From Lentisphaerota bacterium (GTDB lineage Bacteria; Verrucomicrobiota; Lentisphaeria; Victivallales; Victivallaceae), in assembly GCA_015061775.1 (NCBI GenBank), contig SUVY01000012.1, forward strand, positions 1 to 53,155: DNA of 53,155 nt, written 5' to 3'. Shown piece after piece: positions 1-53,155 of the stretch; positions within the stretch are counted from its first letter, which is position 1; the number at the start of each line of letters is the position of its first letter. A program made the translations under genes and the position numbers. The notes under the pieces are model-generated. The model did not search any database and was not told the DNA's origin. It saw nothing but the letters and a program-made list of their open reading frames with translations.

Positions 1-101
1 AGCAAGACAAAAGCACACCTTTTTTTGAATCATCTTTCGCTGATTATTAAATTTTTTACAATTTTTTTGCAAACAACACTTGAAATTTAGTCTCTCATAG
101 G

Positions 102-153
102 AGAAAAGCGAAAAAACTTTTTTATTTGCTTTTACCTACCTTTGTCTGGAACA
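102..153 (-). repeat. Solo left end of dispersed TIR repeat
   Basis: Read on the minus strand this is about 50 bp of the left end of the repeat found whole at 26399-26586 and 50032-50220: a TTCC(A)GACAAAGGTAGG-type start, then the A/T-rich run ending TTTTTTCGCTTTTCT. It carries one mismatch in the terminal TTCCCGA and ends abruptly at CTCCTATGAG. It overlaps the 3' end of the FtsK-like gene and supplies that gene's stop codon. The first 100 bases of the window hold only A/T-rich sequence and no gene I can support. Confidence 0.75.
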
Positions 154-1122
154 GAGCCTTTTATTTATCAAACACGTCAGTATATCATCGCAATACTGCG
201 ATGTCCGATTTGAAAGGGATTTGACCATCTGCTTGATATCTTTATGAACAAATGCACTATGGACGCTTTCGATGTTGATGTGGGAAGGACTCATCAGCAG
301 CATATCGCCCATTCCGGCAAGTTTTTCCGCGCCCCCGGTACCGAGCACTACACGGCTGTCAAGTACGGAATTCACCCTGAAACAGAAAAATGATGTAAAC
401 TGAGCCTGGATTACACCAGTAATGACATCGGGCGATGTAACTCGGGTAGAAACTATCAGCTGAATACCGGCAGTCCGTCCTTTTTGCCCAATGCGAACAA
501 TGAATTTCTCTATCTCCTTTGCATCCCCTGTCGTCATTACATCAGCAAGCTCATCGATGATAACAACCAGATATGGCAGACGGTCAGGTATCGGTGCTCC
601 ACAAAAGCCGCAATTTTTTTGTCCTGCAATCTTGCGGCTGTTATATTCTGCTATATTCTTTACTCCAGCTGCGGCAAGCTGCAGGTAACGCCTTTCCATC
701 TCATTTTCCCCCCAGTCCAAAACTGTGATAACTTTGGAGGTGTCGCTGATCACAGGAGTAAGCAAGTGTGGAATAGTTTTATAATCCTCAAACGCCGCAA
801 CGTCTGATGATGCCATAATAAGTTTCAATCTGTCCGGTGACAATTTCAGAAGGAGACTTGCGATAACAGAGTTGATACCCTCACGCACTTCAGCTTTATC
901 ATTTCCTGCAATAAGAATGTTGTGCGTACGGGCAAGATCAAGTATGACAGGATTGCCGGAAGCATCTTCACCTACGGCAACAGGCATACTCATATCGGCA
1001 TTTTCCCAGGCTTCGCTTCCCCAAATGCGGTGTATGTCAACAAATGAATTGTTCCTGCTCGCCATTGACTCAGGAATAGTTTGAGACGCTGAGTTTTTTG
1101 AAACGTTGTTAATATTTTCCAT
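136..1122 (-). CDS. FtsK/SpoIIIE motor-domain homologue with a destroyed P-loop
   Basis: 328 aa. The sequence aligns along its length with the RecA-like motor domain of FtsK/SpoIIIE: IPHLLTPV around residues 118-125, EMERRY around 142-147, Walker B with DELAD at 191-195, and DVITGVI followed by a GGAEKL...GDML block. It lacks the N-terminal membrane segments and the C-terminal gamma winged helix of FtsK. The P-loop is gone: where FtsK has AGTTGSGKSVGIN this protein has AGNDKAEVREGIN (residues 72-84), so the catalytic Lys is Val79 and the glycines are lost. The usual MIDPK is replaced by IMASSD. Walker B is intact. It is therefore probably not a normal DNA-pumping ATPase; a structural or DNA/partner-binding role is inference. 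It lies 36 bp after the LRR gene, likely in the same operon. Its last residues (about CSRQR) and stop are encoded by a repeat fragment, so the natural C-terminus may have been replaced. Confidence 0.75.
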   Translation of the reverse strand: MENINNVSKNSASQTIPESMASRNNSFVDIHRIWGSEAWENADMSMPVAVGEDASGNPVILDLARTHNILIAGNDKAEVREGINSVIASLLLKLSPDRLKLIMASSDVAAFEDYKTIPHLLTPVISDTSKVITVLDWGENEMERRYLQLAAAGVKNIAEYNSRKIAGQKNCGFCGAPIPDRLPYLVVIIDELADVMTTGDAKEIEKFIVRIGQKGRTAGIQLIVSTRVTSPDVITGVIQAQFTSFFCFRVNSVLDSRVVLGTGGAEKLAGMGDMLLMSPSHINIESVHSAFVHKDIKQMVKSLSNRTSQYCDDILTCLINKRLCSRQR

Positions 1123-4455: not shown

Positions 4456-4532
4456 CTACTTATCAATATAAAGCGTTATAAAGAAAATCCAAGTCCCAAA
4501 ACAAAAAAATCGCAACTTTTTAACAAAAAGAT

Positions 4533-4619
4533 TTGTTCCCGATATGGGGAGATGATGCGGGAAAAGCGGAAAAACTTCTTTTCTCGTGAAAAGAAGTTTC
4601 GCCCTTCCCCCGCTTCATC
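4533..4619 (-). repeat. Right-end fragment of dispersed TIR repeat
   Basis: Starts TTTGTTCCCGATATGGGGAGATGATGCGG, matching the complement of the right ends of the full copies, then includes the CTTCTTTTC-tcgt-GAAAAGAAG hairpin and CGCCCTTCCCCC. The left half of the element is absent. It sits just after the stop codon of the M19 gene. Confidence 0.75.
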
Positions 4620-25581: not shown

Positions 25582-26430
25582 ATGAAAATTTCAGTTATAA
25601 TTCTCTCCTTGCTGTGTTCCGCCGCAGCGTTTGCCGGTAAAAGTATCGCGTTTACCACCGTTCCGGACAAATCGCTTCTGACGCCGCAAAAAGCGTTGAC
25701 CGGATTGCAGATACGTCCTGAAAATACCGATAAGTGCAAGTTTTACCGTATATCCATGCAGATAAAGGCAACACATCCGGGAGAGATAAGCTCCCGCATC
25801 GCCGTCGGCAAAAAGTCTTCGTGGGAAAATATCTGCGTTCCGGACACAGAGTGGAACACCGTTTACCGCTATGTTTCTCCGGGGGAAGCATGGACTTACA
25901 AAGCCAGCGTAAAAAACAAAGCCTTCTCTTTCTGCGTCAGAGATATAAAGGTCGAAGAGCTGGACGACAACGACTTGACAGCCAATTTGCTTCCTCATCT
26001 CGACAACTGCGGATGGCACAGCGTGTGGAGCAAACTGAAGGCAAAAACAGAACTGGTAAAAAGCGATGACTCCCCTTTCGGAAGAAACATTTTTTCCGCC
26101 GAGATCAACGCCAATACCGGATATCCGGCGACCCTTGCGATCCCGGCAGTTCCCGGATGTACTTTGGTGCTCGAGATATGGGTCAAGGGTGAGCCTGATG
26201 ATGTCTGGAACGCTACCGTCTCACGCCGCGGAACCAAGAAGCTTCCCCTGAAAGCAGAGTGGCGCAGATATGAAATCAAATACAAAATCTCTCCGAAAAC
26301 CGCTCCCGGCACGGAGTCTCTTGTCTTCTGGAAACAGAAAAACAAGAAAAAATTGACTTGCACCATCGCGCAAATAAAAGCATATTATGAAAAGGATCTG
26401 TTCCCGACAAAGGTAGGTAAAAGTAAATAA
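25582..26430 (+). CDS. Small secreted protein, carbohydrate-binding-like, C-terminus from repeat
   Basis: 282 aa with a signal peptide (SVIILSLLCSAAAFA). I recognise no catalytic family. The pattern of beta-strand segments (LEIWVKGEPDDVWNATV, EWRRYEIKYKI) resembles a CBM4/9-type jelly roll, as in the neighbouring glycosidase. It follows that gene by 7 bp. The last residues (about LFPTKVGKSK) and the stop codon lie inside the full repeat copy beginning at 26399, so the original C-terminus has been replaced or extended by about ten residues. Confidence 0.75.
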   Translation: MKISVIILSLLCSAAAFAGKSIAFTTVPDKSLLTPQKALTGLQIRPENTDKCKFYRISMQIKATHPGEISSRIAVGKKSSWENICVPDTEWNTVYRYVSPGEAWTYKASVKNKAFSFCVRDIKVEELDDNDLTANLLPHLDNCGWHSVWSKLKAKTELVKSDDSPFGRNIFSAEINANTGYPATLAIPAVPGCTLVLEIWVKGEPDDVWNATVSRRGTKKLPLKAEWRRYEIKYKISPKTAPGTESLVFWKQKNKKKLTCTIAQIKAYYEKDLFPTKVGKSK

Positions 26431-26586
26431 AAAAGTTTTTTCGCTTTTCTTGAAAGGGTGAGATCCGCCGTCGCCAAGGCTATGGCGGGACAAGGGGACA
26501 AGAATAACGAAGCCGACGTTCGGCTTCTTTTCTCGCGAAAAGAAGTTTTCCCGCTTTCCCCGCATCATCTCCCCATATCGGGAACA
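26399..26586 (+). repeat. Full copy A of dispersed TIR repeat
   Basis: 188 bp bounded by TGTTCCCGA and TCGGGAACA, a perfect 9-bp terminal inverted repeat. Inside: an A/T-rich left arm, a hairpin AAGCCGA-cg-TTCGGCTT followed by CTTTTC, and a second hairpin CTTCTTTTC-tcgc-GAAAAGAAG. Nearly identical to copy B (50032-50220). No ORF of its own and no transposase nearby. Confidence 0.9.
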
Positions 26587-26630
26587 AAGCTTATGAAAAA
26601 TAAGATCTATAATTCAGGAATAACCGTAAA

Positions 26631-29046: not shown

Positions 29047-29055
29047 AGAAGAGCT

Positions 29056-29085
29056 CTGCTCCCGGTAAGGGTCGGTAAAAGTAAA
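29056..29085 (+). repeat. Degenerate left end of dispersed TIR repeat
   Basis: CTGCTCCCGGTAAGGGTCGGTAAAAGTAAA-type sequence recalls the left end TGTTCCCGACAAAGGTAGG...AAAAGTAAA with several changes. It lies 10 bp after the lipoprotein stop and directly abuts the inverted copy that follows. Confidence 0.55.
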
Positions 29086-29090
29086 GGCTT

Positions 29091-29238
29091 TGTTCCTGAT
29101 ATGGGTAGATGATGTGGGGGAAGGGCGAAACTTCTTTTCACGAGAAAAGAAGTTTCGCCCTTCCCCCACGCCCCCAACCCACTTCAAGAAAAGCGGAAAA
29201 ACTTTTTTATTTACTTTTACCTACCTTTGTCGGGAACA
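29091..29238 (-). repeat. Inverted copy of dispersed TIR repeat
   Basis: Reads as the element in reverse: TGTTCCTGATATGGG..., the CTTCTTTTC/GAAAAGAAG hairpin flanked by GGGGGAAGGGCG and CGCCCTTCCCCC, then the left arm ending TCGGGAACA. It is 148 bp, shorter than the full copies because the AAGCCGA hairpin is absent. It lies between the lipoprotein gene and the decayed gene at 29269. Confidence 0.85.
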
Positions 29239-29268
29239 GAACCAAAGTAAATAAAAAGATGATTTTAT

Positions 29269-49968: not shown

Positions 49969-50031
49969 GCATACCGGGCAACAGGATAATGGACGGCACC
50001 GCAACAACGCGGATCACATTGAAATAGGCGC

Positions 50032-50220
50032 TGTTCCCGACAAAGGTAGGTAAAAGTAAATAAAAAAGTTTTTTCGCTTTTCTTGAAAGGGAGAGATCCG
50101 CCGTCGCCAAGGCTATGGCGGGACAAGGGGAAAAGAATAACGAAGCCGACGTTCGGCTTCTTTTCTCGTGAAAAGAAGTTTTCCCGCTTTCTTTCGCATC
50201 ATCTCCCCATATCGGGAACA
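50032..50220 (+). repeat. Full copy B of dispersed TIR repeat
   Basis: 189 bp between TGTTCCCGA and TCGGGAACA, nearly identical to copy A across the whole length (a few substitutions, for example GAAAAGAAT for GACAAGAAT). The same two hairpins are present. AAAGC follows both full copies. It separates the terminator from the next gene by leaving only about 27 bp before its start. Confidence 0.9.
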
Positions 50221-50247
50221 AAGCTTTGAAATAAAGTTTTTTTGAAA

Positions 50248-52957: not shown

Positions 52958-52981
52958 TATAACTTCCGCAAAACACAAAGG

Positions 52982-53024
52982 GGCTGTTGCAAAACCTTGG
53001 AAAGGTGAGCAACAGCCTTTATCT
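52982..53024 (+). terminator. Terminator after the PH-like gene
   Basis: GGCTGTTGC (52982-52990) pairs perfectly with GCAACAGCC (53009-53017), with an inner ACCTT/AAGGT stem, followed by TTTATCT. The GGGCTGTTGCAAAA start also resembles known insertion-sequence ends, but no transposase follows in the window. Confidence 0.7.
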
Positions 53025-53082
53025 ATTGTTTGAAAGAAGCCAAGCCACGCAATCCGGCTTGAGAAAACGGAAGGCTCCCGAA

Positions 53083-53117
53083 CGGAGAGGAACGGAGTTG
53101 AACGGAGTGAACGGAGA
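53083..53117 (+). repeat. Short direct-repeat tract AACGGAG x4
   Basis: AACGGAG occurs four times in 35 bp with 2-3 bp between units, next to the end of the window. No gene is supported in the last 130 bp. Confidence 0.75.
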
Positions 53118-53155
53118 TCATGTATGTGGAGAAGTATTCCGCCCGCCATTGTCTG

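What the first reader, a model, noticed from the sequence alone, without database searches (positions are those of the whole stretch)
26399..26586. Dispersed repeat with 9-bp terminal inverted repeats
TGTTCCCGA...TCGGGAACA bound a 188-bp unit with two internal hairpins, repeated at 50032-50220 with near identity. An inverted shorter copy lies at 29091-29238, and fragments at 102-153, 4533-4619 and 29056-29085. Six occurrences in 53 kb with no transposase suggest a non-autonomous family (MITE- or REP-like) that is abundant in this genome.
Basis: seen in the sequence. Interest (0 to 1): 0.7.

Follow-up and report, generated by a model that had tools for sequence, protein, structure and literature searches.

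The report
Mobile miniature transposon family in Lentisphaeria
The repeat is a tiny transposon with no genes of its own that has spread to roughly a hundred places in this gut bacterium's genome and also occurs in related species, and it in turn serves as the landing site of a second, larger mobile element.

Summary
Confirmed and sharpened. The unit is 198 bp (26394-26591), five bases longer at each end than reported. It has 14-bp imperfect terminal inverted repeats (about RGCTYTGTTCCCGA) and a perfect 8-bp target duplication (TATGAAAA). The window holds five copies or remnants; a 158-bp copy (29086-29243) sits inside an older one. In the 2.7-Mb genome 171 end motifs occur (reversed-pattern control 5); two sheep-colon relatives have 169 and 205. 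Of 72 end pairs, 51 have exact 8-bp duplications (12.5% GC). Removing the 26394 copy restores the upstream gene's own stop codon. One copy has an unoccupied orthologous site in a relative. This is a MITE family with length classes of about 161 and 198-199 bp. No transposase with these ends was found: IS1595 and IS6 were absent, ISL3 and IS256 occur in the genus but without matching ends. New observation: an IS1111-type (IS110-family, DEDD) element has inserted repeatedly at one exact position in the MITE (CTTTCA^AGAAAAGCG). Its end forms window bases 1-101, which explains the truncated copy at 102-158. The longer class also carries a hairpin repeat that is widespread in the genus. Verdict: a new family of a known kind; the recurrent nested targeting is the most interesting part.

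The parts
26394..26591 (+). Intact 198-bp MITE copy (the reported unit, ends corrected). A end GGATCTGTTCCCGACAAAGG at left; B end, reverse complement AGCTTTGTTCCCGATATGGG, at right.
26386..26393 (.). Target-site duplication, left copy, TATGAAAA
26592..26599 (.). Target-site duplication, right copy, TATGAAAA
26462..26495 (+). Core hairpin GATCCGCCGTCGCCAAGGCTATGGCGGGACAAGG: also a separate dispersed repeat in other genomes of the genus and order, outside any MITE
26509..26527 (+). Perfect 8-bp-stem hairpin GAAGCCGACGTTCGGCTTC followed by TTTT; intrinsic-terminator-like on both strands; only in the 198-bp class
26446..26460 (+). Sequence CGCTTTTCTTGAAAG (reverse complement CTTTCAAGAAAAGCG): the exact target site of an IS1111-type element, uninterrupted in this copy
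50027..50225 (+). Second intact MITE copy, 199 bp, flanked by 8-bp duplication TTGAAATA (50019-50026, 50226-50233)
29086..29243 (-). Intact 158-bp copy of the short class, inverted, with long central hairpin; duplication AAAGTAAA (29078-29085, 29244-29251). Inserted into an older copy.
29052..29085 (+). A end of the older, decayed MITE copy that received the 29086-29243 insertion
4529..4619 (-). Decayed copy: B end plus central hairpin only
102..158 (-). Left part of a MITE copy, cut at the IS1111-type target site. The ORF on the minus strand at 136-1122 (FtsK/SpoIIIE family) ends inside it.
1..101 (+). Right end of an IS1111-type (IS110-family) insertion sequence, cut off by the contig edge; subterminal repeat GTCTCTCAT then AGG at the junction

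Best explanation
The unit is a MITE: a non-autonomous DNA transposon of about 158-199 bp whose two ends (about RGCTYTGTTCCCGAYA) are presumably recognised by a transposase supplied in trans. That transposase cuts out or copies the element and inserts it at AT-rich sites with an 8-bp stagger, which gap repair turns into an 8-bp duplication. Shown: the ends, the duplications, high copy number, identical copies at different sites with different duplications, nested insertion, an orthologous unoccupied site in a relative, and restoration of a gene's stop codon when the element is removed in silico. Inferred: the trans-acting DDE transposase (not found). In a second layer, an IS1111-type DEDD insertion sequence of the same genome inserts at one fixed position in the MITE (CTTTCA^AGAAAAGCG) and in related repeats with the same 15-mer; the junctions are shown, guidance by its non-coding RNA is inferred from work on IS1111/IS110 elements. 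The 198-bp class differs from the 161-bp class by replacement of the left arm of the central hairpin by a 65-nt stretch containing two other hairpins, one of which is a separate dispersed repeat.
For: 52 blastn matches in the own genome, one of them 100% identical over 188 bp at another locus (C39) with a different flank. End motif 85 forward + 86 reverse in the own genome, 87+82 and 107+98 in two relatives, reversed controls 2-5 per genome. Exact 8-bp duplications in 51 of 72 end pairs; at least 7/8 in 57 of 72 against 2.1% for shuffled pairings; duplication GC 12.5% in a 49% GC window. In 22 of 22 pairs retained from public contigs of relatives at least 7 of 8 bases match, but that list was filtered on this. 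Empty-site join: ORF 25582 ends ...AYYEK* without the element...AYYEKDLFPTKVGKSK* with it. Copy at G000:C104:17625 has an unoccupied orthologous intergenic site in RGIG5525, flanking genes about 77% identical. Nested MITE-in-MITE at 29052-29251. IS1111 junctions: 13 of 13 own-genome left ends follow TTCA (of ...TTCAAGA), 8 of 8 own-genome right ends and 3 of 3 in RGIG5525 precede AGAAAAGCG; complete relative in G017 encodes a 358-aa DEDD/Transposase_20 protein.
Against: No autonomous element with these ends was found. The genome is a draft MAG, so high-copy elements may be missing from the assembly, but that is not proof that one exists. The unoccupied site is between species with diverged spacers, so the exact empty junction cannot be read there. 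No movement was observed. 21 of 53 insertions lie in stop-to-stop frames of 150 codons or more (random 86%), so some may be inside genes.
Confidence: 0.95

Rival explanations
1. REP/REPIN-type repeat: a palindromic repeat moved by a RAYT (Y1 HUH) transposase without target duplication, not a DDE-type MITE.
For: Intergenic, dispersed, hairpin-rich; an internal hairpin is a stand-alone dispersed repeat across the genus.
Against: Clear inverted-repeat ends and exact 8-bp target duplications, which single-strand HUH transposition does not make (established knowledge of the IS200/IS605 and RAYT families). RAYT genes were not searched.
Confidence: 0.03
2. Functional intergenic element (mobile terminator or RNA regulator) kept by selection; the transposon anatomy is secondary.
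For: 198-bp class has a terminator-like hairpin on both strands; insertions avoid divergent gene pairs (3 of 28; convergent 10, tandem 15); the strand folds better than shuffles (z -2.8).
Against: No Rfam family matched. Positions are not conserved between relatives. Insertions are explained by an AT-rich target preference. Hairpins next to insertion sites are not clearly enriched (45% vs 30% at MFE <= -10).
Confidence: 0.04
3. The parent is an IS1595-family (IS1016-like) element. This concerns the source of the transposase, not whether the unit is a MITE.
For: IS1016-group ISApl4 has 14-bp ends GGGGCTGTACTAGA and AT-rich 8-bp duplications (PMC12561309), the closest published match found in length, GG..CTGT start and target type.
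Against: PF12762 absent in all 24 genus genomes searched, own genome included.
Confidence: 0.3
4. The parent is another family with 8-bp duplications (ISL3, IS6, IS256).
For: GGCTCT-type start (known for ISL3 and IS6 from general knowledge); ISL3 transposase matches in 10 of 34 genus genomes; in G049 a broken ISL3 gene is joined to a MITE-like end.
Against: ISL3 elements of the genus end in GGTTCTTCGACGGTTTGTGAC / GCCTCTTCGACGGTTTATGAC, not the MITE end. IS6 absent in 24 genomes. IS256 transposases occur in 5 of 24; at the one full-length gene (G016) no MITE-like end within 3 mismatches flanks it.
Confidence: 0.3

Closest known systems
Bacterial MITEs in general (Chunjie of Geobacter, QMITE1/2 of Coxiella; review PMC10969869)
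   Same: Under 500 bp, inverted-repeat ends, direct-repeat duplications, many mostly intergenic copies, size variants, truncated derivatives.
   Different: Different sequence and host phylum; no parental transposase identified; recurrently used as landing site by an IS1111-type element.
IS1595 family, IS1016 group (ISApl4, PMC12561309)
   Same: 14-bp ends beginning GG..CTGT, AT-rich 8-bp duplications.
   Different: Only the outer bases agree (GGGGCTGTACTAGA vs GGCTCTGTTCCCGA); no such transposase in the genus genomes searched.
IS1111-type elements that target REP or attC sites (ISPa11; PMC11187229, PMC1525189)
   Same: DEDD + Transposase_20 protein, subterminal inverted repeats 7 bp and 3 bp from the ends, longer non-coding region downstream of tnp, insertion at one site in a dispersed repeat without duplication.
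   Different: The target here is a MITE interior rather than a REP or attC site, in Lentisphaeria; the RNA guide could not be read because the own-genome copies are broken at contig ends.

Membership tests
MITE | Short (<500 bp) with terminal inverted repeats | tested here: met
   Main classes 158-162 and 198-200 bp, extremes 70-260; 14-bp imperfect ends
MITE | Target-site duplication of fixed length | tested here: met
   Exact 8 bp in 51 of 72 end pairs
MITE | No transposase gene inside | tested here: met
   Too short; the one longer unit (926 bp, C9) holds a nested repeat, not a transposase
MITE | High copy number and evidence of movement | tested here: met
   171 end motifs in own genome; unoccupied orthologous site in a relative; nested insertion
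MITE | Ends shared with an autonomous element | tested here: not met
   None found among the families searched and about 250 end sequences examined. This is common for MITEs and the MAGs are fragmented, so absence is weak evidence.
IS1595 derivative | IS1595 transposase in the genome or genus | tested here: not met
   PF12762: 0 of 24 genomes
IS1595 derivative | GG-start 14-bp ends and AT-rich 8-bp duplication | tested here: met
   searches compared with PMC12561309
ISL3 derivative | Ends match ISL3 elements of the genus | tested here: not met
IS6 derivative | IS6/IS240 transposase in the genus | tested here: not met
   PF13610: 0 of 24
IS256 derivative | Ends match IS256 elements of the genus | tested here: inconclusive
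   PF00872 in 5 of 24; only one full-length gene (G016), no matching ends there
REP/REPIN | No inverted-repeat ends and no target duplication; RAYT gene in genome | tested here: not met
   Unit has ends and duplications; RAYT gene not searched
IS1111 type (the element at window 1-101) | DEDD_Tnp_IS110 and Transposase_20 domains | tested here: met
   Complete relative in G017, PF01548 3.1e-15 and PF02371 6.2e-18. The window itself has only the end; the own-genome assembly has no PF02371 match.
IS1111 type (the element at window 1-101) | Subterminal inverted repeats, 7 bp from left end and 3 bp from right end, no target duplication | tested here: met
   AGATATT-ATGAGAGAC ... GTCTCTCAT-AGG; flanks join to CTTTCAAGAAAAGCG (definition from PMC11187229)
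IS1111 type (the element at window 1-101) | Longer non-coding region downstream of tnp | tested here: met
   312 bp downstream vs 143 bp upstream in the G017 relative
IS1111 type (the element at window 1-101) | seekRNA matches the target | not testable with these tools
   Own-genome copies broken at contig ends; only about 101 bp of the right end available

The most novel reading that the evidence does not exclude
Two-layer mobile system: an IS1111-type, presumably RNA-guided element has specialised on a fixed site in the interior of a MITE family, so the MITE spreads safe landing pads for it through the genome, and related species keep the element but with other targets. In addition the 198-bp MITE class arose by capturing two hairpins, one from another dispersed repeat and one terminator-like.
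Probability: 0.6. Interest if true: 0.5.

Novelty: new member of a known kind. Interest (0 to 1): 0.4.

Why it matters
No paper linking MITEs to Lentisphaerae was recognisable among the ten listed of 23 holding both words, so this may be the first well-delimited family in that group. The family helps explain why assemblies of these ruminant-gut bacteria break: many contig ends lie in its copies. Its 198-bp copies are up to 94% identical between two species whose genes in the regions compared are only about 77-83% identical, which suggests recent activity or transfer. The exact, repeated use of its interior by an IS1111-type element is a natural test case for RNA-guided target choice: related elements in sister species sit in other targets, so guide and target can be compared directly once closed genomes exist.

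Tried and rejected
Rfam: only tRNAs. ISL3 (own genome and 34 genus genomes), IS1595, IS6 and IS256 as parents: absent or with other ends. IS110 C-terminal domain in the own assembly: none; the elements are cut at contig ends. Long units as possible autonomous copies: C9 926 bp is a MITE with a nested 800-bp repeat; G011:C59 767 bp has no duplication and encloses an unrelated ORF. Exact-pattern scan of 84,980 public genomes: 47 stretches, all Lentisphaeria/Lentisphaerae MAGs, no transposase between ends in any pair. Terminator targeting: hairpins next to insertion sites not clearly enriched. A CAAGACAAAAGC stretch in the IS1111-type non-coding region resembles the MITE target but is also present in relatives with other targets, so it is not evidence of a guide. 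The G049 join of an ISL3 fragment to a MITE-like end was considered as a parent and rejected because real ISL3 ends differ. Orthologues of the 50027 locus in relatives have no copy, but the two flanking genes are not adjacent there, so these are not clean empty sites.

Full report
OBSERVATION. Flanks of 30 loci from the own genome show that the shared unit is five bases longer on each side: (A/G)G(C/A)(T/C/G)(C/T) + TGTTCCCGA at both ends, in opposite orientation. With these ends the window copies are 26394-26591 (198 bp), 50027-50225 (199 bp) and 29086-29243 (158 bp, inverted), each flanked by a perfect 8-bp direct repeat, TATGAAAA, TTGAAATA and AAAGTAAA. The two ends are not the same: the A end continues ...CAAAGGTAGGTAAAAG, the B end ...TATGGGGAGATGATG.

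NOT CHANCE. A blastn search of the own assembly (2.7 Mb, 107 contigs, 98% complete) gives 52 matches at E<=0.01, sixteen of them 188-189 bp long at 93-100% identity; some of the weaker rows are hairpin self-matches. The 16-bp end motif, two mismatches allowed, occurs 85 times forward and 86 times reverse; the pattern read backwards occurs 3 and 2 times. Over all loci held, 72 non-redundant end pairs of 55-300 bp were collected; 51 have an exact 8-bp duplication and 6 more have 7 of 8, against 2.1% for left and right flanks of different copies paired at random. Identity stops sharply after 8 bases (51 pairs identical over 8, one over 9). The duplicated 8-mers are 12.5% GC in a window of 49% GC. 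The collection includes loci chosen because they match, and pairing allowed up to three mismatches per end, so some of the 72 are not true pairs.

MOBILITY. (a) The copy at G000:C39:8606 is 100% identical to the window copy over 188 bp, in an unrelated flank with its own duplication. (b) At 29052-29251 a 158-bp copy sits inside an older copy; the duplication AAAGTAAA is part of the older copy's A end. (c) Removing 26394-26591 and one duplication copy makes ORF 25582 end ...IAQIKAYYEK*; with the element it reads on into the A end and ends ...YYEKDLFPTKVGKSK*. (d) The 161-bp copy at G000:C104:17625 lies between two genes whose orthologues in RGIG5525 (L185) are next to each other with a short spacer and no element, 77% identity over the joined flanks. 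(e) Two other intergenic sites carry copies in both species but with different duplications, and one of them in opposite orientation and of different length class, so they look like independent insertions. Orthologues of the genes beside the 50027 copy also lack it, but those genes are not adjacent in the relatives, so nothing is claimed from them.

DISTRIBUTION. Of 40 relatives searched, strong full-length matches are in G002; others (G001, G019 and more) have partial or diverged matches. End-motif counts are 171 (own), 169 (G002), 205 (G019), 89 (G011) and 18 (G001). A more restrictive end pattern, scanned over 84,980 public species genomes, hit only Lentisphaeria/Lentisphaerae MAGs: RGIG5525 and RGIG5513 from sheep colon, SIG95 and SIG97. 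Contig lengths and places identify G002 with RGIG5525, G019 with RGIG5513 and G001 with SIG97. Interiors differ by species: G011, G013, G014 and G019 have their own interiors between the same kind of ends, with 8-bp duplications for several of them. The 198-bp copies are up to 94% identical between own genome and G002, while genes are about 77-83% identical in the regions compared. This suggests recent activity or transfer; it was not tested with a tree.

INTERNAL STRUCTURE. The 161-bp class has one long central hairpin (GGGGAGAGAGGGAAAACTTCTTTTCTCGCGAAAAGAAGTTTTCCCGCTTTCCCC). In the 198-bp class the left arm is replaced by a 65-nt stretch with two other hairpins. The first, GATCCGCCGTCGCCAAGGCTATGGCGGGACAAGG (26462-26495), occurs on its own in many genomes of the genus and in some of the order, without the MITE ends. 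The second, GAAGCCGACGTTCGGCTTC + TTTT, scores as terminator-like on both strands. Which class came first is not settled. The element folds better than shuffles as DNA (z -2.8); the A end has stops in all three frames within 40 bases. Insertions are fewer in long frames than random sites (21 of 53 vs 86%; stop-to-stop frames of at least 150 codons, a crude measure) and rare between divergent genes (3 of 28). Hairpins next to the insertion sites were not clearly enriched (45% vs 30%), so terminator targeting is not claimed.

THE MISSING TRANSPOSASE. IS1595 (PF12762) and IS6 (PF13610) are absent in 24 genus genomes, own genome included. ISL3 (PF01610) is absent in the own genome but present in 10 of 34 genus genomes; its elements end in GGTTCTTCGACGGTTTGTGAC / GCCTCTTCGACGGTTTATGAC, not in the MITE end. 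IS256 (PF00872) occurs in 5 of 24, only one gene full length, without MITE-like ends. Of 247 end sequences clustered, 224 form one MITE cluster and none of the others is an evident transposon end with a transposase. By end length, GG..CTGT start and AT-rich 8-bp duplication the nearest published comparison found is the IS1016 group of IS1595 (ISApl4, PMC12561309); this is a resemblance, not membership. Other families with 8-bp duplications were not searched.

SECOND LAYER: AN IS1111-TYPE ELEMENT IN THE MITE. Several own-genome copies stop at the same base and continue into the same foreign sequence, and the contig then ends about 110 bp further. A probe joined from three such ends found the ends in 15 of 24 genus genomes. 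In G017 both ends lie 1,532 bp apart around a 358-aa gene with PF01548 (3.1e-15) and PF02371 (6.2e-18), 9-bp subterminal repeats 7 and 3 bp from the ends, and 312 bp of non-coding sequence downstream: the features of the IS1111 type (PMC11187229). In the own genome 13 of 13 left junctions follow ...TTCA and 8 of 8 right junctions (window 1-101 included; three more in RGIG5525) precede AGAAAAGCG; joined they give the intact MITE sequence CTTTCAAGAAAAGCG with no duplication. Most of these junctions are in recognisable MITE copies; by eye, two left flanks (L243, L244) and two right flanks (L247, L249) are in other repeats that share the motif. G019's own MITE is cut at the equivalent place. In G003, G011, G017 and G021 the related elements have other flanks. 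Recurrent insertion in a dispersed repeat is known for IS110/IS1111 elements and REPs (PMC1525189). A second, different end (L007, L008, C72) enters MITE copies within the A end; its reading frame recalls IS110 C-termini by eye only.

LIMITS. The assembly is a draft MAG that breaks in these repeats; copy numbers are from end counts, not full copies. The whole genome was not available as a file. Nothing here shows movement directly.

Noticed in passing
window 1-101: Contig edge is the right end of an IS1111-type insertion sequence; the same ends sit at many contig edges of the own genome and its relatives.
   Followed up: yes
window 52981-53155 (contig end): 98% match to an 800-bp repeat that is nested in a MITE at G000:C9 and bounded by GGGCTGTTGCAAAACC / GGTTTTGCAACAGCCC; no transposase seen; partial copies in other held loci.
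   Followed up: partly
L239, L240 (own genome), L241 (G014), L242 (G012): Stand-alone palindrome AGATATTATGAGAGACCTCTTGTGTCTCTCATAATATCT, the same as the hairpin at the IS1111-type left end, found without the element; terminator-like or a solo remnant.
   Followed up: partly
window 26462-26495 and L052-L064: The hairpin GATCCGCCGTCGCCAAGGCTATGGCGGGACAAGG is a separate dispersed repeat in many genus genomes and some of the order; its own mover was not sought.
   Followed up: partly
L007, L008, L045 (C24, C97, C72 ends): A second mobile-element end enters the MITE within the A end; a frame reading ...MRKMLLILRGMVIADKEFDKNYKN... recalls IS110-family C-termini by eye.
   Followed up: partly
window 136-1122, minus strand: FtsK/SpoIIIE-family ORF (PF01580, 3.2e-37) whose last codons and stop lie in the MITE fragment; a second case of a MITE rewriting a gene's 3' end.
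   Followed up: no
L265 (G014), L269 (G001): ISL3-family elements with ends GGTTCTTCGACGGTTTGTGAC / GCCTCTTCGACGGTTTATGAC; L269 is an internally deleted 642-bp form.
   Followed up: partly
L272 (G049:C402): Broken ISL3 transposase gene joined directly to a MITE-like end; chimera or rearrangement.
   Followed up: partly
L072 (G001:C15): Tiny palindrome of about 60 bp between two MITE-like ends GGCTCTGTTCCCGA...CGGGAACAGAGC.
   Followed up: no
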